Below are positions 8,000-63,817 of a stretch of DNA of 64,000 nt, piece after piece. A program made the position numbers and the translations under genes. Source of the DNA: Halomonas sp. GT (GTDB lineage: Bacteria > Pseudomonadota > Gammaproteobacteria > Pseudomonadales > Halomonadaceae); the NCBI RefSeq assembly GCF_002082565.1, contig NZ_CP020562.1, positions 1,426,001 to 1,490,000 on the forward strand, read 5' to 3'. Positions within the stretch are counted from its first letter, which is position 1; every line of letters begins with the position of its first letter. The notes under the pieces were generated by a model. The model saw only the letters and a list, made by a program, of their open reading frames with translations, was not told the origin of the DNA and did not search any database.

Positions 8000-8030
8000 T
8001 GTATTCTCCATTTGTATTTGTTTATCTGTT

Positions 8031-10428: not shown

Positions 10429-10453
10429 TGATGTGGCAACAGTCTTCCGGACA
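10429..10453. repeat. IS terminal inverted repeat, orfB end
   Basis: The outer bases TGATGTGGCAACAG supply an in-frame TGA stop to the interrupted transporter gene. Pairs with 11662-11686. Confidence 0.85.
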
Positions 10454-10458
10454 TATTT

Positions 10459-11307: not shown

Positions 11308-11321
11308 GATAAAGGTGTATT

Positions 11322-11621: not shown

Positions 11622-11661
11622 GACACACCTCTATAAGCAGGAGATATTACCTGCGTCTGTG

Positions 11662-11686
11662 TGTCCGGGAAACTATAGCCACTTCA
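11662..11686. repeat. IS terminal inverted repeat, orfA end
   Basis: Reverse complement begins TGAAGTGGCTATAG and matches the other end at 20 of 25 bases. The 3-bp GCT duplication follows at 11687-11689. Confidence 0.85.
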
Positions 11687-12736
11687 GCTTTTCCTTTCAG
11701 AGTACATGCATCGGTTGATGATTCAGGCAATGAAAGCACAGGAAAATACCAAGGGGCTTTTACACTCAGCTACGATAACCTTTTGACACTAAGCGACCTG
11801 TTCTACATTACTCTGCAGTCTGAATTAGGAGGTAAAGACCCCGGAGACCGAGGCAACTCTGGGCATGCTTTACATTACTCCGTCCCCTGGGGGTACAGTC
11901 TCCTGTCATTCAATAGTTCTAGCTCTCGATATCATCAAACTATTGCTGGTGCTTTTCAGGACTATGTTTATTCGGGTACAAGCGATCAGCACGATGCACA
12001 ACTTTCGCGTGTCCTTCAGCGTGACCAAGCAGGTAAAACCACAGGCGCTATACGTGCGTTTCACCGGCGCTCAAACAACTACATAGATGATACGGAAATT
12101 GAGGTGCAGCGTCGTGCTGTATCTGGGGTGGATATCAGTCTTGGTCATCGTCGTAGCGTGGGCCCGGGGGTGTGGGAAGCAGTCCTCACTCATCGTAGGG
12201 GCATCGGTGCATGGGGGGCATTGCCCGCCCCCGAAGAAGCATTCGGTGAAGGCACGTCACGTATGCGAATGTGGTTACTGAATGCCAGTGTGAGTATTCC
12301 TTTTGATTTTGTCCATCAGCGTTGGAACTACCACGGTAGCTTTCGTGGACAGTGGCATGAAACCCCTCTAACTCCCCAAGATCGATTTTCTATCGGTGGA
12401 CGTTATTCCGTGCGCGGCTTTGATGGTGTGAGCATGCTCAGTGGTGACAGTGGCCTTTTATTGCGTAACGAAGTTTCCATGCAGCTTGGTCGAAGCCCCT
12501 ACAGCGTGTACTCAGGGTTAGATTGGGGGCGGGTCAGCGGACCCTCTAATCAAATGCAACTGGGTAACGAAATGGCTGGGGCGGTAGTGGGTCTGCGTAC
12601 GCGATGGAACACGGGGCCAGTGCAAAGCAATGTCGATCTTTTCTTAGGTCAGCCACTTCATAAACCTGAGGGGTTCAGAACCGCCAGTCAGGATTACGGA
12701 TTTAGTTTTCATATTCAATTTTGATACGAGAAAACA

Positions 12737-15700
12737 ATGAATAAAAAACTCTACCGACTCGTCTTTAATGCCTCGCGCGGTTGTCTTGTCGCGGTATCAG
12801 AAAGTGCTCTGCGAAAAAACAAGAGCTCTGGACGGAGGCAGGGCGCCGGTATGGGGAGTTCCGCAATTGTGGTGCTGCGTTTGGCCGCTACTTTCGCCTT
12901 GGGGTTAAGTACTTTGAGTAGCGCTTTGGTTCAGGCGCAAATCATGCCTGATTCTGCCGCACCGGGCAACCAACGCCCTACGGTGCTAAGCACCTCTAAT
13001 GATGTGCCGTTGGTCAATATTCAAACCCCAAGTGCTGCTGGTGTAAGTCGTAATACATACGAACAATTTGACGTGGGTGCGCCAGGAGCCGTACTCAATA
13101 ACAGCCGCACTGATGTGCAGACCCAACTTGGGGGGTGGGTGCAGGGAAATCCGTGGCTGGCCAAAGGTGAGGCGCACATCATTCTCAACGAAGTTAACAG
13201 CAATAACCCTAGTCAGCTCAAAGGGTTTATTGAAATCGGTGGGCAGCGTGCCGAAGTCATCATTGCCAACCCTGCCGGAATTGAGGTGGATGGTGCAGGT
13301 TTCATTAATGCTAGCCGTGCCACTCTCACCACGGGTACCCCCTCAATGAACGGAGGTAGCCTCGAAAGTTATCGCGTGCTGCGCGGTACTGTTCGTATCA
13401 ATGGTAAAGGCCTTGATGCCAGTCTGACTGACTATACTGGCATCCTAGCGCGTGCCATTGAAGTCAATGCTAGCATTCATGCGCAAGAGTTGGACTTAGT
13501 GACGGGTGAGAATAATATTGATGCTAGTAGCCCAAACAATATTCAGCCAAGCTCTGGCACTGGTGCTGCGCCAGCCTTTGCACTGGATGTGGGTGAGTTA
13601 GGAGGTATGTACGCTGGACAAATTCGGCTAGTAGGAACTGAAGCGGGAGTAGGTGTCCGTCATCATGGGACTATGGCTGCTAGCGCAGGCAATATTCAAA
13701 TCGACACCAATGGTCAACTGAGTTCAACCGGGACTATCCAAGCAGATCAAGGTGATATTGCTATCCGTACCGCGCAAGACCAAAGCTACAGTGGAAGCTT
13801 GCTAGCCGGAGAAAACCTGACGCTGCATAGTGGCGGCAATCACCAGAATGAATACAGTGATAGCAAACTCGGTACCATTGAAAACAGCGGGGTTCTACGT
13901 GCTGGCCAAGAAGCTAATTTGCGTGCGGTCGATTTAAATAATAGCGGCCGGGTAGACGCTCAGCGGCTAGATATAGAGGTAGATAACCTCAGCAATAGTG
14001 GTGACTTGTGGCAAAGTGGTGCCCAGAGCCTTAGTGTCCAAGCCACCAGTCTGGTCAACGAGCAAGATGGGTTTCTAGGGCGTGTGGCATTACCTACACC
14101 AGCCCCTCAGGCTCCGGAATCTTCTGTACAAGTCCCAAGTGGCGATGAAACAAACAGTTCTCAAGTCTCTGATAGCCTGGTTATATCTTCGCAACCCAAT
14201 CCGGACTCTAAGCAAGCTTCAGCTCCGCTTGCATTAGGGACGGTGAAAGTTGGTGATCGCTTGGAAAATTATGCAGATGGGACTCTAGCTGCAAAGGGTG
14301 ATCTTTACGTAAGTACAGGTCAAACATTTAGCAATGCTGGTCACGTTCGCGCTCAAAGCGTGCAGGCTAGCGGCGACTGGTTTGAAAATTCTGCTGGCAC
14401 CCTGCAGGTTGATCATCTCAGTGTTGGAGTAGACACCGTACACCTAAGCGGCGGTGCGGTGTCGGCTGATACCTCCACGCTCAGAAGCAAAAAGCACATC
14501 CAGGAGTCGGAAGCACAGCTTTATTCACATGGTGAGCTCCGCTTGAATTCTCAGCGTCTGAGCAATGCCGGTGAAATTCAGTCTGACGGCACGTCTCATA
14601 TTGCTATAGCCAACAGTCTAACCAACACCGGCACCATTGCGGCGTCCGATGATCTAATCATCGATGCTGTCCGTATTGATAGTAGTGGCACTCTGGCGGC
14701 CGGCTTGAGCAGTAATGGAAATCTCAAACCGTTTGATGCTAATGGTGCTGCACTTCGCGTTACCACGACTAATGACCTGATCGCCACCGGTACTAATTTG
14801 GCTGCAGGCACTCTGACCCTTAACGGCGACAATGTCGATCTGAGTGAGAGTCAGACCAGTGCTTTTGATACGCATATCACTGCCCGTGGTGATATCGACA
14901 CTTGGCAAGCCAGTGTCGTCACCCAGGAAAACTTATTGCTCCATACTGACGGTGCGCTCGACAATACCAAGGGCACCCTGTCCAGCCAGCAAGGCGACCT
15001 GAGTGTCCAGGCACTTAGCCTGAGTAACGAGCAGGGTGAGTTATTGGCTGATAAAGACCTGTCGATTGCTCTAAGAGACACCCTAAGCAACACTGATGGC
15101 GCCATCTACGCTGGCAAAAACGCCACTCTAGACACCACTGCGCTGACCAATACCGGCACCATCACGGCAGCTGATGATTTGACTATTGATGCCGACAGCG
15201 TTGATAGCAGTGGCACTCTGGCCGCTGGTCTGAATAGCGATGGCAGTCTAAAACCGTTTGATGCTAACGGTGCTGAACTGCGCGTCACCGCCACTGGAGG
15301 ACTAAGCACCTCCGGCACTAACTTGGCTGCTGGCGCGTTGACCTTTAATGGTGACCATGTTGACCTCAGCGATAGCCAGACCAGCGCTTATCGCGCTGAT
15401 ATTGCGGCGCGTGGTGATCTGGCGACTTGGCAGGCCAACATTGTTGCTCAAGAGAGTTTATCGCTCCAGTCGGGCGGTGCTCTGGATAACACTGATGGCA
15501 CCTTGTCCAGTGAGCAAGGTGATCTAAGTGTCCAGGTGTTGAGCCTTAAAAACACCGACGGCACCATCTACGCGGGTGGAAACGTCACCCTAGATACCGG
15601 CACACTCACCAACTCAGGCACTATTGCTGCAGCCGATGACGTGACAATTAGTGCTGCCAATGTGCACAGCAGCGGCACTCTAGCAGCTGGCCTGAACCAA

Positions 15701-21700: not shown

Positions 21701-24700
21701 GCTGCACTGCGTGTTACCACCAGCGGTGACCTGAGCGCTACCGGCACCAACTTAGCTGCGGGATCGCTGACCCTAGACGGCGACCATGTCGATCTGAGTA
21801 AGAGCCAGACCAGCGCCTACCGCGCTGATATTACGGCTCGAGGTGATTTGGCGAGCGGGCAAGCCAACATCGTCACTCAAGAGAGCTTATCACTCCAGTC
21901 AGGCGGTGCCTTGGATAACACTGAGGGTACCTTGTCCAGTGAACACGGTGACCTAAGTGTGCAGGTGTTGAGCCTCAACAACACTGATGGCACTGTCTAT
22001 GCGGGTGGCAATACCACCCTCGAAGCAGCGGAGGCCATTGATAACCGCCGAGGCACGCTATACAGCGAACAGGGCGATTTGAGTCTGCAGGCGATCAGCC
22101 TGGCTAATACAGAAGGCACTGTCTACGCAGGTGGCAACGCCGCCTTGGATACTGATGCACTGACCAATACTGGCACCATTGCCGCCGCTGATAATCTAGC
22201 TATCGACGCTGCCAGCGTCGATAGCAGCGGCACCTTGGCCGCTGGTCTGAGTAGCGATGGCAGCCTCAACACGTTTGACGCGAATGGTGCCGCACTGCGT
22301 GTTACCACCAGTGGTGATTTGAGTGCTACCGGCACTAACTTGGCTGCAGGTACGCTTACTCTGGACGGTGAGAATGTCGATCTGAGTGAGAGCCAGACCA
22401 GCGCTCACAGTGCTGAGATTGCCGCCCAGAGCAAACTCGACACCTGGCAAGCCAATGTTGTGACTCAGGAAAACTTAACCCTGCAGGCTGAAGGCGCGAT
22501 TGATAACACTGAAGGGACCCTGTCCAGTCAGCAAGGCGACCTGAGCGTACAAGCGTTGAGTCTGAACAACGAACAGGGCGAGCTGCTGGCAAGTAATGCC
22601 TTAGAGGTGGCTCTTAGCGAATCCCTCAGCAACACCGACGGCACCGTCTATGCAGGCGGCAATGCCTCCCTCGATGTCGGTGAGCTTACCAACACCGGTA
22701 CTGTTGTTGCTGCTGATAATGTGACCATTAACGCCACCAGCGTTACTAGCAGCGGCACCCTAGCGGCAGGTCTGAGTAGCGATGGCAGCCTCGGCACGTT
22801 TGACGCGGATGGTGCTGCACTGCGTGTCACCACCAGTGGTGATTTGAGTGCTACTGGCACTAACTTGGCAGCGGGCTCGCTGACCCTAGACGGCGACCAT
22901 GTCGATCTGAGTAAGAGCCAGACCAGTGCCTACCGCGCTGATATTACGGCTCGAGGTGATTTGGCGAGCGGGCAAGCCAACATCGTCACTCAAGAGAGCT
23001 TATCACTCCAGTCAGGCGGTGCCCTGGATAACACTGAGGGTACCTTGTCCAGTGAACACGGTGATCTAAGTGTGCAGGTGTTGAGCCTCAACAACACTGA
23101 TGGCACTGTCTATGCGGGTGGCAATACCACCCTCGAAGTAACGGAGGCCATTGATAACCGCCGAGGCACGCTATACAGCGAACAGGGCGATTTGAGTCTG
23201 CAGGCGATCAGCCTGGCTAATACAGAAGGCACTGTCTACGCAGGTGGCAACGCCGCCTTGGACACTGAAGCACTGACCAATACTGGCACCATTGCCGCCG
23301 CTGATAATCTAGCTATCGACGCCGCCAGCGTCGATAGCAGCGGCACCTTGGCCGCTGGTCTGAATAGCGATGGCAGCCTCAATACGTTTGACGAAAATGG
23401 CGCTGAACTAAGAGTTACCACCACTGGTGAGCTAACGGCCAACGGCACTAACCTAGCGTCGGGTAACTTGACGCTTGACGGTGACAACGTTGACCTGAGT
23501 GAGAGCCAGACCAGTGCCTTTGATACGCGTATCACCGCCCGTGGTGATATCGACACCTGGCAAGCCAATGTTGTGACTCAGGAAAACTTAACCCTGCAGG
23601 CTGAAGGCGCGATTGATAACACTGAAGGGACCCTGTCCAGTCAGCAAGGCGACCTGAGCGTACAAGCGTTGAGTCTGAACAACGAACAGGGCGAGCTGCT
23701 GGCAAGTGATGCCTTAGAGGTGGCTCTTAGCGAATCCCTCAGCAACACCGACGGCACCGTCTATGCAGGCGGCAATGCCTCCCTCGATGTCGGTGAGCTT
23801 ACCAACACTGGTACTGTTGCCGCTGCTGATAATGTGACCATTAACGCCGCCAGCGTTACTAGCAGCGGCACCCTAGCGGCAGGTCTGAGTAGCGATGGCA
23901 GCCTCGGCACGTTTGACGCGGATGGTGCTGCACTGCGTGTCACCACCAGTGGTGATTTGAGTGCTACTGGCACTAACTTGGCAGCGGGCTCGCTGACCCT
24001 AGACGGCGACCATGTCGATCTGAGTAAGAGCCAGACCAGTGCCTACCGCGCTGATATTACGGCTCGAGGTGATTTGGCGAGCGGGCAAGCCAACATCGTC
24101 ACTCAAGAGAGCTTATCACTCCAGTCAGGCGGTGCCCTGGATAACACTGAGGGTACCTTGTCCAGTGAACACGGTGATCTAAGTGTGCAGGTGTTGAGCC
24201 TCAACAACACTGATGGCACTGTCTATGCGGGTGGCAATACCACCCTCGAAGTAACGGAGGCCATTGATAACCGCCGAGGCACGCTATACAGCGAACAGGG
24301 CGATTTGAGTCTGCAGGCAATCAGCCTGGCTAATACAGAAGGTACTGTCTACGCAGGTGGCAACGCCGCCTTGGATACTGAAGCACTGACCAATACTGGC
24401 ACTATTGCCGCCGCTGATAATCTAGCTATCGACGCCACCAGCGTCGATAGCAGCGGCACCTTGGCCGCTGGTCTGAAAAGCGATGGCAGCCTCAATACGT
24501 TTGACGAAAATGGCGCTGAACTAAGAGTTACCACCACTGGTGAGCTAACGGCCAACGGCACTAACCTAGCGTCGGGTAACTTGACGCTTGACGGTGACAA
24601 CGTTGACCTGAGTGAGAGCCAGACCAGTGCCTTTGATACGCGTATCACCGCCCGTGGTGATATCGACACCTGGCAAGCCAATGTTGTGACTCAGGAAAAC

Positions 24701-30700: not shown

Positions 30701-33700
30701 CAAGATGGAACCCTAAAAGAGCCTGCCCAAGGAAGCGGTGTACTCAGCGTCATCGCCATCGGGGACTTGAGTTCCTCTGGCACCAACTTGGCGGCGGGAC
30801 GCCTGACGCTTGATGGTAACAATATTGATCTGAGCGGCAGCCAGACCAGTGCCTACAATGCCGACATCGTTGCCCGTGGCGACCTCACCACTTGGCAGGC
30901 TAATGTCGTCACTGAAGAAGAGTTGTCGCTTCGTGCCGCCGGTGCGATTGACAATAAAGACGGTGTCTTGGCTTCCAAGGCGGGTAGCCTAATGATCAAT
31001 ACCCACGGCGTGACAAATACCGGCGGCCTGATGGTAGCAGCCACCGAACTGGGTATCGAGGCCAATAGCGACAATATTAACAATATCAGTGGTGACATCC
31101 TGTCCCAAGGTGACATGAGCCTGTCGACCCACGCCGACATTCTCAACACGGGTGGTATCGTTCAGTCCAATGCGGCTATCAGCCTGAGTGCTAACACCGT
31201 CAACAACCGTCAGACCGGCGAAGATACCCAGGGTATTGTAGGTGATGACGTGCAGATCACTGCCAGCTTCGTCGACAATACCGAAGGACAGGTGCTAGCT
31301 GGGCGCGATCTGACCATCACTGCCGACAGGTTCATCAACAATACGCATGGTAAAATCAACGCTCAGCGTCATCTTAATCTGCAAGATGGTGTGCCCGGTT
31401 CAGACACCCTCCCTGGTGAGCGCAACCTAGTTATCAGCAATGCGGGGGGCGAGATTGTTGCTAATAATGACATCGCCCCAGCGGCTGCCTCTATCACTAT
31501 TACTGCTAAGACGCTGGGTCTGGATGGAACCATGGAAAGCGGCGGTGATATGTCGTTGGATCTAGTGGGCGACCTCAACACCGCCGCTGATCAGCAAGTG
31601 CGCACGGAAGGCGTCTTGAGTTTACGATTACATGGCGAACCCAATGGTAACACCTTTAATAATGCTGGAAAGTGGGAGGGCGGGCGCGGTCTCGCTATAC
31701 ACGCCGATGAGATTCGTAACCAGGCTAGTGGCGAATTACGTAGCAGGGGTGTCACCGCACTAGACGCCGTACAAACAACCAATCGAGGCTTAATCGATGG
31801 GGCTGATACGCGAATCAACAGCCACAAGGTCGACAACGTAGGTACTGGGCGTCTCTATGGTGACCATATTGCCATTGCCGCCAATCACCTTAGCAATCGT
31901 GAAGAAACGGTGGGTGGCCAGACGAAAGCTGCCACGATTGCCGCCCGAGAGCGGCTGGATGTTGGCGCCCAGCATATTACCAACCGTGAGGGTGCGCTGA
32001 TTTTTAGCGGCGGCGATATGGCCATCGGTGGCTCACTCTTCTCTAACTATCAGGCCGTGGCAGACGGCACTGGCAATGCAGCAACGCTCAACAACAACAG
32101 CGCCACCATTGAAAGCTTAGGAGACATGGTGCTGGCGGCCGACACGCTACGCAATACCAATGAGCATTTTGCGATCACTGAGGAGTATCTTGGTGAGACT
32201 ACGTTAACGTTGATTCAGCCAGAGGGCTGGGGCACGGAGTTGATCATTGCTGAGAACGAGCAAGTTTTGAGGCCGCTTCATGGCTGGAGAACGCAGCTTG
32301 ACAACGGGGTGACGCTCGTTTGGCATGATGGAGATAAAAGGCCAGAAACGCTATATTCTGAGTATTACCAAGGGAAGGATTTCTCGGGCTACTACGCCTA
32401 TTACGACGGATCTGAACCAGACATAATTCGTAGTTGGACGCAGTACTGGGTTGACCGAAAAGAGTATGAAAGCAAGGTCGTCTCTAGCGCCCCCAGCCAG
32501 ATTATGGCGGGAGGAAACCTCGGCCTGAGAGGACAACACATACTCAACGATAAAAGCCGTATTATCGTTGGTCGAACTCTGTACGGGGATACGGGTAACC
32601 TGGAAAACAGGGAGGCCTTGGGAGAAAGACGTGTAAGTAACGAAGGCACAGCACGAAAAACTAATCCTTCTGGAGCATCGTTTAGTGGCCCAGACGGAAG
32701 TGGAGGCATCCACTATACAAGACGTCACTGGCACGCTCCAACGAGTTACAACCCGCCTGATGAAGTCACGACCATCAACCTAGGCGTTGGTGAGATAAGA
32801 CAAAACACAGCCGTTTCAGGTACCGGTGTTAGCATTGGTGGTAAAGCTGACCTTGGCACTGCTAGCGGCGTCAGCACCGGCAGCACAGATGCCACCGGTT
32901 CCGCACTGGCGGATCAAAACGCCAGTCACGATACACAGGAGGTGGCTAAGGCGAGTAATAGCACCAACGCCGTGAACACGGAAACCCATGGGGTTAGCGA
33001 AACAACGTTCAGTGCCAACCGCTCAGGCGATGCGACCAACAGCACCAGCGCGGTAAGTACGGATGCCCGCGAGGTGACTGATACATCGTTTAAGGCTAAC
33101 CACTCAGGCAGCGTGGTGAATAGCGCCGACAGCGTGAACACGGAAACTCATGGGACAAGCGAAACATCCTTCAGTGCCAATAGCCCTGGTAGTGTGCACA
33201 GCGCTAATGGAGTGGACACGGATGCTCATGGTGTGACGGGAGCATCGTTTAGTGCCAACAACTCAGGTAACGTGACCAACAGCGCCAATGTCGTAAATAC
33301 AGAAACTCATCGGGTGAGCGAAGCAGCGTTCAGCGCGAATGAAGCTGGCAACGCTGCCAGTAGTGTCAACGCTGTGAACACAGAGGCCTATGGGGCGACT
33401 GGCACGTCGTTCAGTGCCAACGATTCTGGCAACGCCGCCAGCAGTGCCAACGCTGTGAACACGGAAACCCATGGCGCGGCTGGCACACCGTTCAGTGCCA
33501 ACAAGCCAGGCAATGCCACCAACAGTGCCAATGTGGTGAATACGGATGCTCATGGGCAGACCGAGGCATTGTTTAGTGCTAACAGACCGAGCAATGTCAC
33601 CAACAGCGCCAATGCGGTGAATACGGATGCTCATGGACAGACAGACACATCGTTTAGTGCCAATAGCTCAGGTGACGCAACCCGGCGCGCCAATGCAGTG

Positions 33701-36700
33701 AATACGGAAACCCACGGAGCCGCTGGTACTTCGTTCAGTGCCAACAGCCCCGGTGATATAACCCACAGCGCTAATGCGGTGAATACGGATGCTCATGGGC
33801 AGACGAGAGCATCGTTTAGTGCCAATGGCTCAGGTGACGCAACTCGTCGCACCAATGCAGTGAACACGGAAACCCACGGAGCCGCTGGTACTTCGTTCAG
33901 TGCCAACAGCTCGGGCAACGTCACCAATAGCACTAATGCGGTGAATACGGATGTCCATGGAGCGACTGAAGCATCTTTTAGTACCAACACTAATAGTGCG
34001 ACCCATAGCACCAATAGCATCAATACAGATACCCACGAGACCAACAGCGCCTCGTTAACTGTCCCGTCTTCCAGTAGCACTACCCAAGGCAGCGCCGCGC
34101 TCCCCACCGGCAACGCCCCAGTCTATCACACCAGCGCAAGCGAAGGGGCGCAAGCGACAGCAGGCTTGGGAACGCCATCCGCGCCTGCTGTCTTGCTGCC
34201 GACCAGCAGCCTCTTCACCATAGATCCTGGTAGTAACGCGCGTTACCTGGTGGCGACGGACCCCAACTTTACTGATCACCGCCAGTGGCTTTCCAGTGAC
34301 TATCTACTTTCAGCGTTGGCCTACGATCCGGTTCATGCACAAAAACGCCTGGGTGACGGCTTTTACGAGCAAAAGCTCATTCGTGATCAAATCGCCGCGC
34401 TCACCGGCTACCGCTTCCTGGGCGATTACCGCAGCGATGATGCACAATACGCGGCGCTGATGAACGCGGGGGCGACCTTTGCGCATGAACACAAGCTGCG
34501 CCCCGGCATTGCGTTGTCAGCGTCGCAAACCGCCCAGCTCACCAACGATATCGTCTGGCTAGTCACACAAACCGTACAGCTACCCGATGGCTCTACCGCC
34601 ACCGCCCTGATGCCCAAGGTCTATCTGGCCCCGCGCCAGGGTGATCTAGCCGCCAATGGCGAGCTGTTGGGTGGCCATAATGGCACGCTGATCAGCGCCC
34701 GTGATATCGACCTGGCCCTGAGTGGCGACCTCAACAACAGCGGCACCATTGCCGGGCGCAACCTGGTGGATATCAGCGCCCAGAACCTCACCAACAGCGG
34801 CCGCATTCAAGGCGATATCGCGTTAATTGATGCCCGTCAGGACATCACTATCGACGGTGGCAGCATTGCCGCCAATACTGGCATGGCGTTGCAGGCGGGC
34901 GGGGATATCAACATCGCCAGTACGCTCCACAGCGCCACCAACGAGGTCGATGGTAATACCTTCAGCCTGCAAGGCATTGACCGGATGGCCGGGCTTTATG
35001 TCAACGGCGAGGCGGGCAACCTGCTGGCCAGCGCGGGCGGTGCGATTAACCTCACCGCTGCCGAACTACACAACATTGGCAGTGGCGTGACTCAGCTCAC
35101 TGCAGGTAGCGATATCAACCTGGACACATTGGAAGTTGGCCAACGCCACGCCCTTAACTGGGATGCCAACAACTACCATCACCAGAGCCACAGCGAAGAG
35201 ATTGGCAGCGTGATCACCGGCGGCGGGGCGGTGAGCCTCACCGCTGGGCAAGACATTAACCTGCGTGCCGCCACTATTGACGCCCAGGGTGCCCTGGCCC
35301 TGAACGCCATTGGCGGTGATATCACCCTGGAAGCGGGCCAGCGAACGGATAGCCTGGCTGAAGGCCGCCAAACCCGCAGTAGCGGCCTGTTCTCCAGCCG
35401 CACCCGCACCACCCGCACGAGCAGCATCAACACTCAGGCACTAGCCAGCGAGCTAGGCGGCCAGACGGTCACTATGACCAGCGGTCAAGATATCCACCTC
35501 AGCGGTGCCAACGTCCTGGCCGACCAGGATCTAGGGATTCATGCTGGGGGCAGCCTCACCCTGGATGCCGCCCAAAACACTCTGAGCGACAGCCACTTCA
35601 GCGATAGCCGCAAGAGTGGCCTGTTCAGCGGTGGGTTTGGCATTAACATCGGCAGCCAGCGGCAGATGACCGATGCCACCAATACTGCCACCTTCGTTGC
35701 CCCCACCACCGTGGGCAGCATTGGCGGCAACGTTACCCTCACCGCAGGCGACACCTACACCCAGATCGGTTCTGACGTGCTGGCCCCCAGCGGCGATATC
35801 CTGATTGGTGCCAACACGGTCAACATCCTCGAAGGCCGAGAGACCCGTAGCAGCCAGACCGAACAGCGCTTCAAACAAAGCGGGCTAAGTCTCTCCCTCA
35901 GCAGCCCCGTGATAGACACCGCCCAACGCCTCGAGGGCCAGTTCCAGGCCGCTGGCGACACCCAGAGCCCGCGGATGCAAGCCCTGGCGGCGGCCAATAG
36001 CGCCCTGGCGGTGAAGGATATTCAGCAACAGCTGCAAAACGGCAACACCACCGACCTCAGCCTCAACATCAGCCTGGGCTCCAGCCAAAGCCGCAGCAAC
36101 AGCGAAGCGAGCAGCAACACCGCCCTGAGCTCGACGATCACTGCCGGTGGCGACCTCGCCATTCACGCGCTCGGCCAAGGAGACGGCGAAGGCAACATCA
36201 CCGTACAAGGCAGCCAGCTGGACGCGGGCAACCAGCTTCAGCTCAACGCCGCCCAGGATATCCACCTGCTGGCCAGCGCCGATGCCGTCTCCCAGCGCGA
36301 CAGCCACAACAGCAGCAGTGGCAGCATTGGGCTGGGCATCGGCACGAATGGCATTGCCCTCAACCTGGACGCCAGCCGCGCCAAGGGCCACGGCAACGGT
36401 GACAGTACCTTCTTCAACAACACCCAGCTCAGCGCCGGTAATCAGGTCATCCTCACCAGCGGCGGCGACACCACCCTGCAAGGTGCCGTGGTCAGCGCCC
36501 CGCAAATCAGCACCCACATCGGCGGCGATCTGACCATTGAAAGCCTGCAAGACACCGCCACCCACAACGAACGCCACCAAAGCAGTGGCGGAAGTCTCAG
36601 CATACCGCTGATCGGCGTAGGGCAGGTCACCGCCAGCCTCAACGCCAGCCGCACTAAGCTCAACAGCGACTTCCAAAGCGTCAATGAGCAAAGCGGCCTG

Positions 36701-38212
36701 CGCGCTGGCGACGGCGGCTTCCAGGTCAACGTCGGCGGCACCACCAAACTCACCGGCGGTGCCATCACCAGCACACAAACCGCCATTGACAACGACCGCA
36801 ACCGCTTCACCACCGCCGGGCAAACCGCCAGCGAAGCAATAGAAAGTGGCGCACTCACGTTAACCGACCTTGCCAACAACGCCACCTATGAAGCGGAAAG
36901 CACCAGCGTTGGCCTCAGCAGTGGTGACAAGGGTACCGGTGAAAGCAGCACCGGCCTCTCCGGCATCGGCACCGGCCGCGACGACGGCGACGCCAGCAGC
37001 ACCACCGAATCCGCCATCAGCGGCCTGGCAGGCAACCAAGACGCCCGCACCGGCGACGCAGACACCGGCATTGCACCGATCTTCGATGCAGAAAGCGTCA
37101 GAAAAGACGTCCAGGCCCAGGCCGAGATTACGCAAGAGTTTGGGTCACGGGCGAGCAAGTTAGTGGGCGACACCGCCCAGGCCAAGCTCGAAGAAGCGCA
37201 GATCAAACGCCTGCAAGCCCAACAGGCTCAGGCCGCGGGTGACACAGAACGTGCCAACCAACTCAACGCCCAGGCTGATCAACTGCAAAGCGACTGGGGT
37301 GACAACGGCACCCAACGCCTCGCCGCCCACACCGCCATCGGCGCACTGACCGGCGGAACTCAAGGTGCCACGGGGGCCGCCGTGGGTACCCTCAGCGCCC
37401 CGGCCATCGCGAGTGCCCTGAAAAACGCCGGCCTCGACGACACCCTCACCGACGGCCTCACGGCACTGGCCAGCACCGCTGCCGGTGCAGCTACGGGCGG
37501 CACCCAAGGCGGCGCGGCGGCGTTTAATGAGGTGGTGAATAATTATCTGACCAACCGTGCCATTAACCAGGAGCTGGAGCGATTAACTTCGGAGGACTCG
37601 GCACTGGATCCAGAACTAAAACGCCAACTGGTTGAGCATCAGCTATTGAATGGCCTGCAGGAAAACGCGCCGTTGGATGACTGCCGCGTAGTTGGCAGTG
37701 ACTGCAGCCCACAACTGGATGAGATAACGGCAACGTTCGAGCTGTTGCAAGATCCCAATACACGGGAACAGCTTGGCGGTGATCTCACCGATGCCCTCAT
37801 CGAGCGTCAATTGAATGATCTAGTCGCCACCCTAGAAAGTGTTGACTGGTCACAAGACCCGGACACCATCGCCCGCGCTGAATGGATAGGCCAGCGTGTG
37901 CGCAACATTATTGATATATGTGCTGTGTTTCCAACAGGGGCAGCCTGCCGAGGGGTGTCTCTGGGAATGACTGGCTCGGATGTGACTGAGAAGGTATTAG
38001 ATGGAGATGGTAGTGGAGCGTTGATACAAGCTACAGCAGCAGCTGCTAACCCGGTTGTTGGAAAGGCAGTCTCAGGAAGTGCCGAAAAAACTGGCGTGTA
38101 CTCCGAGGAGTTCCTTGAATGGATGAGGAATATTTATGGAGCTGGCACCGAGAAAATCATTCAGTGGATATATGACGAAACGCAGTCCGCGCCTGATACA
38201 GACGACGAGTAA
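12737..38212 (+). CDS. Giant TpsA/CdiA-like filamentous exoprotein, 8,491 residues
   Basis: A single open frame of 25.5 kb, roughly 0.85 MDa. Domains in order: an extended signal peptide (ESPR) starting MNKKLYRLVFNASRGCLVAV with cleavage near residue 67 (LVQA); a TPS secretion domain (about 68-330) with NPAGIEVDGAGFIN near 178, a variant of the usual NPNGI; FHA-type beta-helix to about 620; 31 repeat units of about 175-196 residues (about 620-6055); further haemagglutinin-type repeats; a Tyr/Trp-rich segment (about 6485-6590); a 27-residue repeat tract (about 6743-7115); a conserved CdiA/FhaB block DPNFTDHRQWLSSDYLL with KRLGDGFYEQKL (about 7174-7220); FHA-2 repeats (about 7290-8050); and a pretoxin region with VVNNYL at 8266 in place of VENN. 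The last 222 residues are the variable C-terminal region, and no known toxin fold was recognised. The start lies 12 bp after the transporter gene. Whether it is a CDI toxin or only an adhesin is unproven. Confidence 0.9.
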   Translation: MNKKLYRLVFNASRGCLVAVSESALRKNKSSGRRQGAGMGSSAIVVLRLAATFALGLSTLSSALVQAQIMPDSAAPGNQRPTVLSTSNDVPLVNIQTPSAAGVSRNTYEQFDVGAPGAVLNNSRTDVQTQLGGWVQGNPWLAKGEAHIILNEVNSNNPSQLKGFIEIGGQRAEVIIANPAGIEVDGAGFINASRATLTTGTPSMNGGSLESYRVLRGTVRINGKGLDASLTDYTGILARAIEVNASIHAQELDLVTGENNIDASSPNNIQPSSGTGAAPAFALDVGELGGMYAGQIRLVGTEAGVGVRHHGTMAASAGNIQIDTNGQLSSTGTIQADQGDIAIRTAQDQSYSGSLLAGENLTLHSGGNHQNEYSDSKLGTIENSGVLRAGQEANLRAVDLNNSGRVDAQRLDIEVDNLSNSGDLWQSGAQSLSVQATSLVNEQDGFLGRVALPTPAPQAPESSVQVPSGDETNSSQVSDSLVISSQPNPDSKQASAPLALGTVKVGDRLENYADGTLAAKGDLYVSTGQTFSNAGHVRAQSVQASGDWFENSAGTLQVDHLSVGVDTVHLSGGAVSADTSTLRSKKHIQESEAQLYSHGELRLNSQRLSNAGEIQSDGTSHIAIANSLTNTGTIAASDDLIIDAVRIDSSGTLAAGLSSNGNLKPFDANGAALRVTTTNDLIATGTNLAAGTLTLNGDNVDLSESQTSAFDTHITARGDIDTWQASVVTQENLLLHTDGALDNTKGTLSSQQGDLSVQALSLSNEQGELLADKDLSIALRDTLSNTDGAIYAGKNATLDTTALTNTGTITAADDLTIDADSVDSSGTLAAGLNSDGSLKPFDANGAELRVTATGGLSTSGTNLAAGALTFNGDHVDLSDSQTSAYRADIAARGDLATWQANIVAQESLSLQSGGALDNTDGTLSSEQGDLSVQVLSLKNTDGTIYAGGNVTLDTGTLTNSGTIAAADDVTISAANVHSSGTLAAGLNQDGTLKAFAIGGRVLDVTTAGDLTATGTNLASGNLTLDGGNVDLSESQTSAFDTHITARGDIDTWQANVVTQENLTLQAEGAIDNTAGTLSSQQGDLSVQALSLNNEQGELLASDALEVALSESLSNTDGTVYAGGSASLDVSMLTNTGTVAAADDLAIDAASVTSSGTLAAGLNSDGSLNTFDANGAGLRVTTSGDLSATGTNLAAGTLTLDGEAVDLSESQTSAYRSGIVARGDLASGQANVVAQNDLSLQSGGTLDNTEGTLSSEDGDLRVQALSLNNDQGELLAGNSLEATLSDTLNNTDGTVYAGGNVTLDTGTLTNSGTIAAADDVTISAANVLSSGTLAAGLNQDGTLKAFANDGGVLDVTTAGDLTATGTNLASGNLTLNGETVDLSESQTSAFDTRITARGDIDTWQANVVTQENLTLQAEGAIDNTAGTLSSQQGDLSVQALSLNNEQGELLASDALEVALSESLSNTDGTVYAGGNASLDVGELTNTGTVAAADNVTINAASIDSTGTLAAGLNSEDGTLKAFAEDGSALSIITDGDLSATGTNIASGRLTLDGDYVDLSKSQTSAYRADITARGDLASGQANIVTQESLSLQSGGALDNTEGTLSSEHGDLSVQVLSLNNTDGTVYAGGNTTLEAAETIDNRRGTLYSEQGDLSLQAISLANTEGTVYAGGNAALDTDALTNTGTIAAADNLAIDAASVDSSGTLAAGLSSDGSLNTFDANGAALRVTTSGDLSATGTNLAAGTLTLDGETVDLSESQTSAFDTRITARGDIDTWQANVVTQENLTLQAEGAIDNTAGTLSSQQGDLSVQALSLNNEQGELLASDALEVALSESLSNTDGTVYAGGNASLDVSVLTNTGTVAAADDLTVDATSVTSSGTLAAGLSSDGSLGTFDADGAALRVTTSGDLSATGTNLAAGSLTLDGDHVDLSKSQTSAYRADITARGDLASGQANIVTQESLSLQSGGALDNTEGTLSSEHGDLSVQVLSLNNTDGTVYAGGNTTLEAAETIDNRRGTLYSEQGDLSLQAISLANTEGTVYAGGNAALDTDALTNTGTIAAADNLAIDAASVDSSGTLAAGLSSDGSLNTFDANGAALRVTTSGDLSATGTNLAAGTLTLDGETVDLSESQTSAFDTRITARGDIDTWQANVVTQENLTLQAEGAIDNTAGTLSSQQGDLSVQALSLNNEQGELLASDALEVALSESLSNTDGTVYAGGNASLDVSVLTNTGTVAAADDLTVDATSVTSSGTLAAGLSSDGSLGTFDADGAALRVTTSGDLSATGTNLAAGSLTLDGDHVDLSESQTSAFNAHIIARNALGTGSATVVTQENLSLHVAGVLNNAEGTLFSQQGDLSVQAFSLNNDQGELLAGNDLEAISKTLSNTDGTVYAGGNATLDTGALTNTGTIAAADNLTIDSASVTSSGTLAAGLNSDGSLNTFDANGAALRVTTSGDLSATGTNLAAGTLTLDGETVDLSESQTSAFDTRITARGDIDTWQANVVTQENLTLQAEGAIDNTAGTLSSQVGSLSVQALSLTNEQGTLLAGNDLSVALSESLSNTDGTVYAGGNASLDVGELTNTGTVAAADNVTINAASIDSTGTLAAGLNSEDGTLKAFAEDGSALSIITDGDLSATGTNIASGRLTLDGDYVDLSKSQTSAYRADITARGDLASGQANIVTQESLSLQSGGALDNTEGTLSSEHGDLSVQVLSLNNTDGTVYAGGNTTLEAAETIDNRRGTLYSEQGDLSLQAISLANTEGTVYAGGNAALDTDALTNTGTIAAADNLAIDAASVDSSGTLAAGLSSDGSLNTFDANGAALRVTTSGDLSATGTNLAAGTLTLDGETVDLSESQTSAFDTRITARGDIDTWQANVVTQENLTLQAEGAIDNTAGTLSSQQGDLSVQALSLNNEQGELLASDALEVALSESLSNTDGTVYAGGNASLDVSVLTNTGTVAAADDLTVDATSVTSSGTLAAGLSSDGSLGTFDADGAALRVTTSGDLSATGTNLAAGSLTLDGDHVDLSKSQTSAYRADITARGDLASGQANIVTQESLSLQSGGALDNTEGTLSSEHGDLSVQVLSLNNTDGTVYAGGNTTLEAAEAIDNRRGTLYSEQGDLSLQAISLANTEGTVYAGGNAALDTDALTNTGTIAAADNLAIDAASVDSSGTLAAGLSSDGSLNTFDANGAALRVTTSGDLSATGTNLAAGTLTLDGENVDLSESQTSAHSAEIAAQSKLDTWQANVVTQENLTLQAEGAIDNTEGTLSSQQGDLSVQALSLNNEQGELLASNALEVALSESLSNTDGTVYAGGNASLDVGELTNTGTVVAADNVTINATSVTSSGTLAAGLSSDGSLGTFDADGAALRVTTSGDLSATGTNLAAGSLTLDGDHVDLSKSQTSAYRADITARGDLASGQANIVTQESLSLQSGGALDNTEGTLSSEHGDLSVQVLSLNNTDGTVYAGGNTTLEVTEAIDNRRGTLYSEQGDLSLQAISLANTEGTVYAGGNAALDTEALTNTGTIAAADNLAIDAASVDSSGTLAAGLNSDGSLNTFDENGAELRVTTTGELTANGTNLASGNLTLDGDNVDLSESQTSAFDTRITARGDIDTWQANVVTQENLTLQAEGAIDNTEGTLSSQQGDLSVQALSLNNEQGELLASDALEVALSESLSNTDGTVYAGGNASLDVGELTNTGTVAAADNVTINAASVTSSGTLAAGLSSDGSLGTFDADGAALRVTTSGDLSATGTNLAAGSLTLDGDHVDLSKSQTSAYRADITARGDLASGQANIVTQESLSLQSGGALDNTEGTLSSEHGDLSVQVLSLNNTDGTVYAGGNTTLEVTEAIDNRRGTLYSEQGDLSLQAISLANTEGTVYAGGNAALDTEALTNTGTIAAADNLAIDATSVDSSGTLAAGLKSDGSLNTFDENGAELRVTTTGELTANGTNLASGNLTLDGDNVDLSESQTSAFDTRITARGDIDTWQANVVTQENLTLQAEGAIDNTEGTLSSQQGDLSVQALSLNNEQGELLASDALEVALSESLSNTDGTVYAGGNASLDVGELTNTGTVAAADNVTINAASVTSSGTLAAGLSSDGSLGTFDADGAALRVTTSGDLSATGTNLAAGSLTLDGDHVDLSKSQTSAYRADITARGDLASGQANIVTQESLSLQSGGALDNTEGTLSSEHGDLSVQVLSLNNTDGTVYAGGNTTLEVTEAIDNRRGTLYSEQGDLSLQAISLANTEGTVYAGGNAALDTEALTNTGTIAAADNLAIDATSVDSSGTLAAGLKSDGSLNTFDADGAALRVTTSGDLSATGTNLAAGTLTLDGENVDLSESQTSAFDTRITARGDIDTWQANVVAQENLTLQAEGAIDNTEGTLSSQQGDLSVQALSLNNEQGELLASDALEVALSESLSNTDGTVYAGGNASLDVGELTNTGTVAAADNVTINATSVTSSGTLAAGLSSDGSLGTFDADGAALRVTTSGDLSATGTNLAAGSLILTGGHVDLSESQTSAFDTRITARGDIDTGQANVVAQKNLTLQAEGAIDNTAGTLSSQVGDLSVQALSLSNEQGELLAGNDLEAISKTLSNTDGTVYANGNANLYADVLANTGTIAAADNLIIDAGSVTSSGTLAAGLNSDGSLNTFDENGAELRVTATGELTANGTNLASGSLTLDGENVDLSESQISAHSADIAAQGKLGTWQANIVTQEDLSLQANGALDNTAGTLSSQGGDLSIQALSLINEQGTLLAGNDVSVTLSEALSNTDGTVYAGGNAILDTGALTNTGTIAAADNLAIDAVSVASSGTLAAGLNSDGSLNTLDADGAALRVTTSGDLSANGNNLAAGSLTLGGDNVDLSESQTSAFNAHIIARNALGTGNATVVTQENLSLHVAGVLNNAEGTLSSQQGDLSVQAFSLNNDQGELLAGNDLEAISKTLSNTDGTVYAGGNATLDTGALTNTGTIAAADNLTIDSASVTSSGTLAAGLNSDGSLNTFDANGAVLRVTTSGDLSATGTNLAAGTLTLDGETVDLSESQTSAFDTRITARGDIDTWQANVVTQENLTLQAEGAIDNTAGTLSSQQGDLSVQALSLNNEQGELLASDALEVALSESLSNTGGTVYAGGNASLDVSVLTNTGTVAAADDLAIDAASITSSGTLAAGLNSDGSLDTFDANGAALRVTTSGDLSATGTNLAAGSLTLDGDHVDLSESQTSAFNAHIIARNALGTGNATVVTQENLSLHVAGVLNNAEGTLSSQQGDLSVQAFSLNNDQGELLAGNDLEAISKTLSNTDGTVYAGGNATLDTGALTNTGTIAAADNLTIDSASVTSSGTLAAGLNSDGSLNTFDANGAALRVTTSGDLSATGTNLASGTLILNGDNVDLSDSQTSAYRAIFAAQGDLDIRAAAIVTQDSLSLHTAGALDNTEGTLSSQAGDLSVKALSLNNEKGSLLAGNDLKVSLSEALINTNGSVYAGGNATLDTGALVNTGTIATVDDLTIDATSVDSSGSLAAGLNQDGTLKTFADGSGALNITTINDIAATGINLAAGNLTLKGDNVDLSESRTSAYSADIAARGDLDTWEANIVSQESLSLYADGALDNTKGTLFSHQGDLNAQARSLNNEQATLLAGNDVSLALSEALSNADGTVYAGGNATLDVNALTNTGTIAAADNLTIDAGSVASSGTLAAGLKSDGSLNTFDANGAELRVTTSGDLSATGTNLAAGSLILGGDHVDLSESQTSAYRTTVTARGDLTSGKANVVTQENLTLQAKGALDNTAGTLSSQAGDLSVKALSLNNEQGSLLADNNLVVLGEALNNTDGTIYAGGNASLDVDVLTNAGTVAAANDLTIDATSVDSTGTLAAGLNSDGNLAAFDTNGAELRITATDHFSATGNNLAAGHLTLESGNVNLSNSQTSANSAAIAARGELRTDNAALISHSDIDIDAQNLNNMGGTVYAGNNATLDAGVLTNTGTIAGADNLIIDANSIESSGTLAAGMNQDGTLKEPAQGSGVLSVIAIGDLSSSGTNLAAGRLTLDGNNIDLSGSQTSAYNADIVARGDLTTWQANVVTEEELSLRAAGAIDNKDGVLASKAGSLMINTHGVTNTGGLMVAATELGIEANSDNINNISGDILSQGDMSLSTHADILNTGGIVQSNAAISLSANTVNNRQTGEDTQGIVGDDVQITASFVDNTEGQVLAGRDLTITADRFINNTHGKINAQRHLNLQDGVPGSDTLPGERNLVISNAGGEIVANNDIAPAAASITITAKTLGLDGTMESGGDMSLDLVGDLNTAADQQVRTEGVLSLRLHGEPNGNTFNNAGKWEGGRGLAIHADEIRNQASGELRSRGVTALDAVQTTNRGLIDGADTRINSHKVDNVGTGRLYGDHIAIAANHLSNREETVGGQTKAATIAARERLDVGAQHITNREGALIFSGGDMAIGGSLFSNYQAVADGTGNAATLNNNSATIESLGDMVLAADTLRNTNEHFAITEEYLGETTLTLIQPEGWGTELIIAENEQVLRPLHGWRTQLDNGVTLVWHDGDKRPETLYSEYYQGKDFSGYYAYYDGSEPDIIRSWTQYWVDRKEYESKVVSSAPSQIMAGGNLGLRGQHILNDKSRIIVGRTLYGDTGNLENREALGERRVSNEGTARKTNPSGASFSGPDGSGGIHYTRRHWHAPTSYNPPDEVTTINLGVGEIRQNTAVSGTGVSIGGKADLGTASGVSTGSTDATGSALADQNASHDTQEVAKASNSTNAVNTETHGVSETTFSANRSGDATNSTSAVSTDAREVTDTSFKANHSGSVVNSADSVNTETHGTSETSFSANSPGSVHSANGVDTDAHGVTGASFSANNSGNVTNSANVVNTETHRVSEAAFSANEAGNAASSVNAVNTEAYGATGTSFSANDSGNAASSANAVNTETHGAAGTPFSANKPGNATNSANVVNTDAHGQTEALFSANRPSNVTNSANAVNTDAHGQTDTSFSANSSGDATRRANAVNTETHGAAGTSFSANSPGDITHSANAVNTDAHGQTRASFSANGSGDATRRTNAVNTETHGAAGTSFSANSSGNVTNSTNAVNTDVHGATEASFSTNTNSATHSTNSINTDTHETNSASLTVPSSSSTTQGSAALPTGNAPVYHTSASEGAQATAGLGTPSAPAVLLPTSSLFTIDPGSNARYLVATDPNFTDHRQWLSSDYLLSALAYDPVHAQKRLGDGFYEQKLIRDQIAALTGYRFLGDYRSDDAQYAALMNAGATFAHEHKLRPGIALSASQTAQLTNDIVWLVTQTVQLPDGSTATALMPKVYLAPRQGDLAANGELLGGHNGTLISARDIDLALSGDLNNSGTIAGRNLVDISAQNLTNSGRIQGDIALIDARQDITIDGGSIAANTGMALQAGGDINIASTLHSATNEVDGNTFSLQGIDRMAGLYVNGEAGNLLASAGGAINLTAAELHNIGSGVTQLTAGSDINLDTLEVGQRHALNWDANNYHHQSHSEEIGSVITGGGAVSLTAGQDINLRAATIDAQGALALNAIGGDITLEAGQRTDSLAEGRQTRSSGLFSSRTRTTRTSSINTQALASELGGQTVTMTSGQDIHLSGANVLADQDLGIHAGGSLTLDAAQNTLSDSHFSDSRKSGLFSGGFGINIGSQRQMTDATNTATFVAPTTVGSIGGNVTLTAGDTYTQIGSDVLAPSGDILIGANTVNILEGRETRSSQTEQRFKQSGLSLSLSSPVIDTAQRLEGQFQAAGDTQSPRMQALAAANSALAVKDIQQQLQNGNTTDLSLNISLGSSQSRSNSEASSNTALSSTITAGGDLAIHALGQGDGEGNITVQGSQLDAGNQLQLNAAQDIHLLASADAVSQRDSHNSSSGSIGLGIGTNGIALNLDASRAKGHGNGDSTFFNNTQLSAGNQVILTSGGDTTLQGAVVSAPQISTHIGGDLTIESLQDTATHNERHQSSGGSLSIPLIGVGQVTASLNASRTKLNSDFQSVNEQSGLRAGDGGFQVNVGGTTKLTGGAITSTQTAIDNDRNRFTTAGQTASEAIESGALTLTDLANNATYEAESTSVGLSSGDKGTGESSTGLSGIGTGRDDGDASSTTESAISGLAGNQDARTGDADTGIAPIFDAESVRKDVQAQAEITQEFGSRASKLVGDTAQAKLEEAQIKRLQAQQAQAAGDTERANQLNAQADQLQSDWGDNGTQRLAAHTAIGALTGGTQGATGAAVGTLSAPAIASALKNAGLDDTLTDGLTALASTAAGAATGGTQGGAAAFNEVVNNYLTNRAINQELERLTSEDSALDPELKRQLVEHQLLNGLQENAPLDDCRVVGSDCSPQLDEITATFELLQDPNTREQLGGDLTDALIERQLNDLVATLESVDWSQDPDTIARAEWIGQRVRNIIDICAVFPTGAACRGVSLGMTGSDVTEKVLDGDGSGALIQATAAAANPVVGKAVSGSAEKTGVYSEEFLEWMRNIYGAGTEKIIQWIYDETQSAPDTDDE
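14600..30900 (+). repeat. 31-unit long tandem repeat array inside the exoprotein gene
   Basis: Thirty-one occurrences of the block built around SSGTLAAGL.SDGSL, each preceded by TNTGTIAAADNL and followed by ATGTNLAAG, then VDLSESQTSA. Unit lengths cluster at 525 bp (175 codons) and 588 bp (196 codons). The longer form adds a second YAGGN..L segment with IDNRRGTLYSEQGDLSLQ. Outer units are more diverged and central units nearly identical, the pattern expected from unequal exchange and gene conversion. Confidence 0.93.
17401..26241 (+). repeat. 1,113-bp higher-order repeat, seven copies
   Basis: A short unit plus a long unit (525 + 588 bp) forms a 1,113-bp period. Copies begin with the same CGATCTGAGTAAGAGCCAGA at 17401, 18514, 20677, 21790, 22903, 24016 and 25129. 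All spacings are exactly 1,113 bp except one of 2,163, where two other units intervene. Stretches of the first two copies that I compared differ by single bases over long runs. A larger 3,276-bp offset also relates 17143 and following to 20419 and following. Confidence 0.9.
32965..34098 (+). repeat. 14-copy 81-bp tandem repeat inside the exoprotein gene
   Basis: A 27-residue unit of the type NAVNTETHGAAGTSFSAN plus about nine variable residues, repeated about 14 times. Copies alternate irregularly between a TETH and a TDAH form. The spacing of TACGGATGCTCATGG at 33541 and 33622 confirms the 81-bp period. It is rich in Asn, Ser, Thr and Ala and lacks the beta-helix pattern of the flanking regions. 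Confidence 0.9.
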
Positions 38213-38260: not shown

Positions 38261-38614
38261 ATGACAGAAAAACAGTTTCAGATATTTTGCAAGGTGATTT
38301 ACCGGGTAACAGTGATGACGTTAATGCTGCAAATTGTGGCGTGTGGCATGATGTTCTGGATGTTTTGGCGGGGCATGCCGGAGTACCAAGATGTGTTGAT
38401 GGGGTTGGCAGGCTCCATAATTTGGTCATTAATGCTCTTGAGTTCAAAAAAAACGCTCTTTAAACGTAAAGAAGTTAAAATGGGCACTTTGGGCGATTCA
38501 GGCATTATGCACTCACTGGGTGCGAATATCTTTTGGTGGTGTGGCTACCACTTTTTTGAACTGTTTTTTGTGCTATATGCAATCTGGCTTTATATAAAGG
38601 TGGTGTGGCTTTGA
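38261..38614 (+). CDS. Small membrane protein, candidate immunity protein
   Basis: A 117-residue protein that I do not recognise. Three hydrophobic segments are evident: residues about 11-35 (VIYRVTVMTLMLQIVACGMM), about 46-62, and about 88-115 with many aromatic residues. A basic loop (SSKKTLFKRKEVK) separates the second and third. It starts 48 bp after the giant exoprotein gene on the same strand, the position held by cdiI in CDI loci, and base composition becomes AT-richer from the end of the exoprotein gene into this gene. An inner-membrane immunity protein would fit a toxin that acts on the membrane. That role is inferred from position and topology only. Confidence 0.6.
   Translation: MTEKQFQIFCKVIYRVTVMTLMLQIVACGMMFWMFWRGMPEYQDVLMGLAGSIIWSLMLLSSKKTLFKRKEVKMGTLGDSGIMHSLGANIFWWCGYHFFELFFVLYAIWLYIKVVWL

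Positions 38615-62164: not shown

Positions 62165-63817
<1,653 letters not shown>

What the first reader, a model, noticed from the sequence alone, without database searches (positions are those of the whole stretch)
12737..38212. An intact 8,491-residue CdiA/FhaB-like exoprotein gene fills 40% of the window
One uninterrupted 25.5-kb frame carries ESPR, TPS domain, FHA-1, FHA-2 and a pretoxin region. Typical CdiA proteins are about 3,000-5,600 residues, so this is far above the usual range. By scaling from FHA (about 50 nm for about 2,200 residues), an extended rod well over 100 nm is plausible, which would change the reach of any contact-dependent system.
Basis: partly seen in the sequence, partly recalled or inferred. 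Interest (0 to 1): 0.75.

Follow-up and report, generated by a model that had tools for sequence, protein, structure and literature searches.

The report
Giant CdiA toxin with broken exporter
A salt-loving bacterium carries an intact, exceptionally long gene for a surface rod that normally delivers a toxin to neighbouring bacteria, but a jumping gene has split the adjacent gene for its exporter, the only clear one of its kind found in this genome, so the weapon is probably not displayed in this strain.

Summary
Confirmed: window 12737-38212 is one uninterrupted 8,491-codon frame (855 kDa) with ESPR, TPS domain, about 31 FHA-1 units of ~175 aa, FHA-2 motifs and a pretoxin region; VENN is absent and the boundary reads VVNNYL. 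It is a cdiBAI-type contact-dependent inhibition locus. The last 220 residues are a variable CT with four of the protein's five cysteines; a 117-aa hydrophobic protein 48 bp downstream is the likely immunity protein, because CT and immunity homologues sit side by side twice in a relative. The length exceeds published CdiA, but TPS-domain frames of 18,106 and 29,206 aa exist. The array grew recently: ~2-kb segments repeated at 1.1- and 3.3-kb spacings are 99.4-99.8% identical, while the same units are 90-95% identical to a sibling species. It holds the only ShlB match and the only above-cut-off POTRA_2 match in this one-contig genome; three relatives have it intact. A 120-150 nm rod is plausible if exported, but export here is probably lost, leaving an immune strain that does not attack. 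New member of a known kind.

The parts
9604..10428 (+). cdiB/tpsB, first half: signal region (by eye) and POTRA domains; the frame ends at a stop formed by the first bases of the IS
   Evidence: POTRA_2 and POTRA_3 Pfam matches; 275/275 aa identical to the V. zhaodongensis gene; Cys120 and Cys158
10429..11686 (-). IS3-family element (1,258 bp), transposase genes on the - strand (11322-11621 and 10459-11307), imperfect 25-bp terminal inverted repeats, GCT direct repeat on both sides
   Evidence: rve/HTH_21 and HTH_Tnp_1 Pfam matches; inverted repeats; flanks read from sequence; second 100% identical 1,258-bp copy at G000:C1:1861050-1862307
11687..12724 (+). cdiB/tpsB, second half: ShlB-type beta-barrel; no signal peptide seen by eye; 11687-11689 is the second copy of the direct repeat
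   Evidence: ShlB PF03865 E 1.2e-81; VRGF and GLDWG motifs; 98% aa identity to G080 and G043, 78% to L004
12737..38212 (+). cdiA, 8,491 aa, 855 kDa
12737..12886 (+). ESPR extended signal peptide (residues 1-50)
   Evidence: PF13018 E 3.7e-13
12935..13723 (+). TPS secretion domain (residues 67-329)
   Evidence: PF05860 E 1.5e-52
14687..30676 (+). FHA-1 array: 31 unit anchors, units mostly 174-197 aa, recently amplified in the middle
   Evidence: AlphaFold beta-helix, mean pLDDT 97.6, for a 546-aa stretch
32174..32956 (+). variable Tyr/Pro-enriched stretch (residues 6480-6740), candidate receptor-binding/YP region
   Evidence: identity to G043 37-73% in 60-residue blocks here, 100% in the block 6400-6459 before it; Tyr 5.0% and Pro 3.8% against 1.2% and 0.85% overall. 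Function inferred from position only
32972..34099 (+). 27-aa tandem repeats (81-bp period)
   Evidence: 14 motif copies; diverged copies also in G043 (12 by a looser motif)
34274..37153 (+). FHA-2 region (residues 7180-8139)
   Evidence: PF13332, 4 stretches; 15 of 16 sixty-residue blocks 87-100% identical to G043, one 75%
37154..37549 (+). pretoxin region ending in AAFNEVVNNYL (residues 8140-8271)
   Evidence: shared with G215 and two orphan modules of G043; the G043 main gene has a different stretch here
37550..38209 (+). CdiA-CT (residues 8272-8491): presumed entry domain and toxin domain; Cys 8316, 8323, 8395, 8404
38261..38614 (+). cdiI candidate, 117-aa hydrophobic protein
   Evidence: homologues follow the CT homologue twice in G215; 12 hits including itself; single copy in own genome
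38869..39838 (+). broken YhgA-like (Transposase_31) remnant bordering the locus
   Evidence: PF04754 E 6.7e-21 for 38939-39838; its end also found in G043

Best explanation
This is a contact-dependent growth inhibition locus (order cdiB-cdiA-cdiI) in a Vreelandella (Halomonas sensu lato) species. In relatives with an intact locus, CdiB would export CdiA as an FHA-1 beta-helix rod, a central segment would bind a neighbour, and the C-terminal 220 residues would enter and inhibit it, while the 117-aa protein protects kin. CdiA is very long because 175-aa units were duplicated in frame at spacings of about 1.1 and 3.3 kb. In this strain an IS3-family element separated CdiB's POTRA half from its barrel half, so CdiA most likely is not exported and is degraded in the periplasm; the strain keeps the immunity gene but probably no longer attacks. 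Shown: gene anatomy, insertion, no other clear TpsB found, CT-immunity pairing in a relative, recent amplification. Inferred: loss of export, degradation, toxin and immunity activity, membrane-active toxin type, rod length.
For: Domains. The only ShlB match in the genome is the barrel half, open frame 366 aa; the only POTRA_2 match over cut-off is the other half. Terminal repeats, 3-bp direct repeat and an identical second element copy. Intact genes in G080 (V. zhaodongensis, 619 aa), G043 (630) and G215 (633). In the genus survey 16 of 18 genomes with a TPS domain have a TpsB open frame of at least 535 aa; the exceptions are this genome and G031, 86% complete, with 200- and 196-aa fragments. 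The CT differs in the sibling G043 and is followed there by orphan CT modules, one with TNT, E 5.6e-31. CT and immunity homologues adjacent twice in G215; 4 of 6 CT hits share contig length and source with immunity hits. Cysteines only at 16 and in the CT. No CdiA1 secreted without CdiB1 in A. baumannii (PMC6831553, passage).
Against: No expression, secretion or toxicity data. No Pfam family in the CT; its AlphaFold model is unreliable (mean pLDDT 44.9). No published pretoxin motif found. No sign of decay in cdiA, so either the insertion is recent or some function persists. One below-cut-off POTRA match (22.2 bits, 793-aa frame) exists; I take it for a BamA-type protein from recall. Insertion and copy number rest on the assembly. 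No 3-bp direct repeat was seen at the second element copy.
Confidence: 0.8

Rival explanations
1. CdiA is still exported, by another transporter acting in trans, by the two CdiB halves acting together, or because the element is absent in part of the population.
For: BcpB transporters of Burkholderia dolosa can serve other BcpA proteins (PMC10449530, passages). cdiA shows no decay.
Against: No other ShlB match and no other above-cut-off POTRA_2 match in the genome. The barrel half follows the element and no signal peptide is seen by eye. CdiB of E. coli and A. baumannii were not interchangeable (PMC7644211, passage).
Confidence: 0.12
2. It is an FhaB-type adhesin rather than a CDI effector; the C-terminus is not a toxin.
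For: No recognised toxin family in the CT and no published pretoxin motif; FhaB shares TPS and FHA repeats.
Against: A different CT in the sibling, with orphan CT modules (one TNT), and a small protein conserved next to the CT. Cysteines confined to the signal region and CT, as described for CdiA (PMC9086364 passage).
Confidence: 0.06
3. Repeat number or the insertion is an assembly artefact.
For: Near-identical 2-kb segments; the V. zhaodongensis draft contig ends inside the array.
Against: Single-contig genome; the two best segment pairs still differ at 4 and 12 sites; a sibling has a similar-size gene in another one-contig genome and a near-identical second record; the element has terminal repeats and a direct repeat.
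Confidence: 0.06

Closest known systems
CdiBAI systems (CdiA EC93 and relatives)
   Same: cdiB-cdiA-cdiI order, ESPR/TPS/FHA-1/central variable segment/FHA-2/pretoxin/CT, cysteines confined to the CT apart from the signal region, orphan CT-immunity modules in siblings
   Different: 855 kDa against 180-630 kDa (PMC9086364 passage); VVNNYL instead of VENN; cdiB interrupted by an IS; CT of no named family
Type-II giant CdiA of Acinetobacter (PMC6336857, abstract and passages)
   Same: length set by FHA-type 20-residue repeat arrays
   Different: 3,711-5,733 residues there; here 175-aa higher-order units with recent duplications
Vreelandella G043 cdiA and Halomonas urumqiensis (G215) cdiA
   Same: related exoprotein and transporter; G043 in the same chromosomal slot; G215 has the same CT type
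   Different: 7,539 and 5,475 aa; intact cdiB; orphan CT modules downstream; G043 has a different CT
FHA/FhaB of Bordetella
   Same: two-partner secretion, beta-helix rod (PMC5371414 passage)
   Different: FhaB is a 370-kDa precursor (PMC5371414 passage); no CT-immunity pair of this kind (recalled)
Ionophore CDI toxins (PMC11630599, abstract and passages)
   Same: small hydrophobic immunity protein
   Different: immunity there is 72-100 residues with a two-helix hairpin; here 117 residues with three hydrophobic stretches; five-helix bundle not established here

Membership tests
cdiBAI locus (by descent) | CdiA with ESPR, TPS domain, FHA-1 and FHA-2 | tested here: met
cdiBAI locus (by descent) | cdiB-type transporter gene directly upstream of cdiA | tested here: met
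   POTRA and ShlB halves end 12 bp before cdiA, gene interrupted; uninterrupted at the same place in G080, G043 and G215
cdiBAI locus (by descent) | variable CT after a conserved pretoxin region | tested here: met
   CT differs from the G043 main gene and two G043 orphan modules, matches G215
cdiBAI locus (by descent) | lineage-specific motif closing the pretoxin region (VENN, (E/Q)LYN, LPEN and others listed in PMC9086364) | tested here: inconclusive
   none of nine spelled-out published motifs occurs in the protein and no PT-VENN Pfam match; NNYL sits at the boundary here and in the aligned relatives that reach it
cdiBAI locus (by descent) | cognate immunity gene directly downstream | tested here: inconclusive
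working CDI system in this strain | intact CdiB transporter | tested here: not met
   gene split by an IS; so it is filed as a CDI locus by descent, not as a working system
working CDI system in this strain | toxin delivery and growth inhibition on contact | not testable with these tools
   needs competition assays
Ionophore-type CdiA-CT | C-terminal five-helix bundle with hydrophobic immunity protein | tested here: inconclusive
   AlphaFold all-helical but mean pLDDT 44.9; immunity candidate hydrophobic
IS3 family element | two transposase frames with rve core, terminal inverted repeats, short target duplication | tested here: met
   the family traits are recalled

The most novel reading that the evidence does not exclude
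A lineage in which the CdiA rod is being lengthened by recent in-frame duplication to about 120-150 nm, roughly four times the 30-35 nm estimated for CdiA EC93, so that rod length itself is under selection for reach through a thick surface layer; this strain is a recent defector that lost the exporter but kept immunity, giving a natural pair for measuring the cost and benefit of a giant weapon.
Probability: 0.15. Interest if true: 0.6.

Novelty: new member of a known kind. Interest (0 to 1): 0.36.

Why it matters
It extends the size of CdiA-type effectors above the 180-630 kDa quoted in a 2022 review (PMC9086364), shows array growth by recent in-frame duplication, and offers a natural case of an intact effector and immunity gene beside an interrupted transporter. 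It also warns that an intact giant frame does not mean a working system: the neighbouring gene decides.

Tried and rejected
Reading the 27-aa repeats as unique to this window: rejected; my motif count (14 here, 1 in G043) missed diverged copies that G043 does have (seen; 12 by a looser motif). Record size: rejected for TPS proteins in general, though this one is longer than all 120 listed of 327 relatives (207 not seen; the window's own protein was not among those listed). Folding the CT: mean pLDDT 44.9, not used. Foldseek of the repeat model: no PDB match at E <= 0.001; best is the two-partner adhesin EtpA, E 9.5e-3. Promoter scan over 9100-12800: 8 promoter-like sites against 5.3 expected, no conclusion. 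Pfam matches inside the array: PSD3 (E 9.9e-12) and Rad51 (1.3e-5) pass Pfam's whole-protein cut-off only as sums over repeats, with no single stretch passing; DUF6294 and Tachylectin stay below cut-off; all taken as repeat artefacts. Below-cut-off matches of small frames 38261, 39177 and 40116 were taken as chance.

Full report
Observation. The frame 12737-38212 on the + strand is open from ATG to TAA, 8,491 aa, calculated mass 855 kDa, pI 4.05. Pfam finds ESPR (1-50) and TPS (67-329) at the N-terminus and PF13332 (FHA-2), best stretch at 7780-7948. NCBIfam finds the 20-residue FHA repeat in both pieces scanned, residues 1-1000 and 5901-8491. dN/dS is 0.30 against V. zhaodongensis (residues 1-640) and 0.19-0.21 against G043 (three pieces), so the gene has been under purifying selection; this says nothing about the time since the insertion described below.

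Where it lies. The genome is a single 4,158,464-bp contig. The organism is therefore taken as a Vreelandella (Halomonas sensu lato) species; the exact species was not established. In sibling G043 the same slot is shared: OHCU decarboxylase and a 307-aa protein on the left (94% and 97% identity), and orf40116 and gpi on the right (95% and 99%), with HAD, glyoxalase (a shorter frame there) and GFA frames between them seen in the frame list.

The broken transporter. Upstream lie two pieces of a TpsB/CdiB gene. Positions 9604-10428 carry POTRA domains and 11690-12724 the ShlB barrel (E 1.2e-81). Between them, 10429-11686, is a 1,258-bp element with an IS3-type transposase pair (rve, HTH_21; HTH_Tnp_1), imperfect 25-bp terminal inverted repeats and a GCT direct repeat on both sides. 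An identical 1,258-bp copy lies at G000:C1:1861050-1862307; no 3-bp direct repeat was visible there. Uninterrupted genes exist in G080 (619 aa), G043 (630) and G215 (633). The first half is identical in all 275 residues to V. zhaodongensis with one synonymous difference; the second half differs from V. zhaodongensis and from G043 by 6 nonsynonymous changes each. Neither half has an internal stop, so the insertion looks recent (inference). The halves keep CdiB hallmarks: Cys120 and Cys158, VRGF, GLDWG (compare PMC7644211, passages).

No substitute was found. Own-genome searches gave one ShlB match, the barrel half, one TPS domain, and one POTRA_2 match over cut-off, the other half; a second at 22.2 bits is below cut-off in a 793-aa frame. 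In the genus survey of 82 genomes, 18 have a TPS domain; comparing, 16 of those 18 also have a TpsB open frame of 535 aa or more. The exceptions are this genome (366) and G031 (200 and 196; 86% complete, 6% contamination). In A. baumannii no CdiA1 is secreted without CdiB1, attributed to instability of the trapped protein (PMC6831553, passage). CdiB of E. coli and A. baumannii were not interchangeable (PMC7644211, passage), but Burkholderia BcpB transporters show relaxed specificity (PMC10449530, passages).

CDI identity. G043 has a different CT, then a 103-aa protein 30 bp downstream, then orphan modules: one ends in a TNT domain (PF14021, E 5.6e-31), one has a DUF4258 match just under cut-off (24.1 against 25), and a third appears interrupted by transposase-like frames (by eye, not scanned). 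In the window the CT follows AAFNEVVNNYL (8261-8271). None of nine published pretoxin motifs that I spelled out occurs in the protein. Of 201 genomes of the family searched with the last 161 residues, 2 matched: this one and G215. Database search gave 6 CT hits, 4 sharing contig length and source with immunity hits; one of the four (P0139) covers only 19% of the CT, and 6 of 11 immunity hits other than the window's own have no such partner. Contig identity itself was not checked. The only cysteines are at 16, 8316, 8323, 8395 and 8404, matching the statement that most CdiA are otherwise devoid of cysteine outside the CT entry domain (PMC9086364, passage). Identity to G215 is 80-83% from 8140 to about 8380 and 52-65% after it, the pattern expected of an entry domain followed by a faster-evolving toxin domain. 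The toxin's activity is unknown. A membrane-active toxin is my guess from the hydrophobic partner (PMC11630599, passages), whose known immunity proteins are shorter (72-100 residues).

Size in context. Published CdiA: 180-630 kDa (PMC9086364); Acinetobacter type II 3,711-5,733 residues (PMC6336857), where the repeat region is stated not to be essential for inhibition. One search found 327 relatives within its length window; of the 120 listed the longest is 7,500 aa (Janthinobacterium). The class survey (369 genomes, 122 with TPS; match listing cut short by the tool) includes frames of 29,206 (G285) and 18,106 aa (G338). In the genus the next longest open frames are 7,543 (G043) and 4,619 (G007).

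How it grew. Unit anchors: 31 here and 24 in G043 by one motif, 15 in G215 by the same motif with one more letter allowed; diverged units can be missed. Within this gene, units 6-9 and 12-14 are 99.7-100% identical to a partner unit, and units 16-20 are 99.1-99.8%; the same units are 90-95% identical to their best G043 match. Edge units 1, 2 and 4 match G043 units 1, 2 and 4 better (90-96%) than any unit in their own gene (71-79%). Not every unit fits: unit 21 is slightly closer to G043 (95.2%) than to its own gene (94.1%), and units 22, 23 and 27-30 are below 85% to everything compared. Segment 17108-19125 recurs 3,276 nt later with 4 mismatches in 2,018; 22437-24495 recurs 1,113 nt later with 12 in 2,059; longest exact repeat 1,108 nt. 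So the middle expanded recently by in-frame duplication, or was homogenised by conversion, which these data do not separate.

Shape. AlphaFold on a three-unit stretch with 55 aligned rows gives a beta-helix with mean pLDDT 97.6; I count 8 rungs per 175 residues from its strand list. Best PDB match is EtpA, a two-partner adhesin, E 9.5e-3. With 4.8 A per 20-residue repeat (PMC5371414, passage), residues 330-6480 would give about 135-148 nm and the array alone about 120-131 nm, against 30-35 nm estimated there for CdiA EC93. This is my arithmetic and assumes one straight extended rod and export.

Papers. The papers cited were seen as abstract starts in listings and as passages only. Searches for Halomonas with CDI (3 papers), for CDI with insertion sequence and cdiB (13 papers) and for cdiB/CdiA with transposase, truncated and pseudogene (10 of 21 listed) showed no title or abstract start describing this locus or an IS inside cdiB; I read passages of two of those papers (PMC10449530, PMC6211672), so absence from print is not established.

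Verdict.

Noticed in passing
G285:C1:290030-290788 and G338:C1:301724-302407: TPS-domain proteins with open frames of 29,206 and 18,106 aa in small (1.9-2.0 Mb) single-contig genomes of the same class, far larger than this one; nature not examined.
   Followed up: no
G043 locus, L102 and L111: Orphan CT-immunity array of several kb downstream of the sibling's cdiA, including a TNT-domain module and one that appears interrupted by transposase-like frames; the window lacks this array.
   Followed up: partly
G215, L118: H. urumqiensis carries several repeated orphan CT/immunity-like modules downstream of cdiA.
   Followed up: partly
P0002: A near-identical record of the G043-type protein ends at 7,170 aa because its reading frame departs just after the conserved FHA-2 region.
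   Followed up: partly
window 63714-63814: 7.8 copies of a 13-bp tandem repeat at the end of and after a LamB-porin gene.
   Followed up: no
window 38869-39838: Broken YhgA-like (Transposase_31) gene next to the locus in a spot where G043 also has a remnant.
   Followed up: partly
P0126, P0135: CT and immunity homologues filed under the alga Ectocarpus; probably bacterial sequence in that assembly (inference).
   Followed up: no
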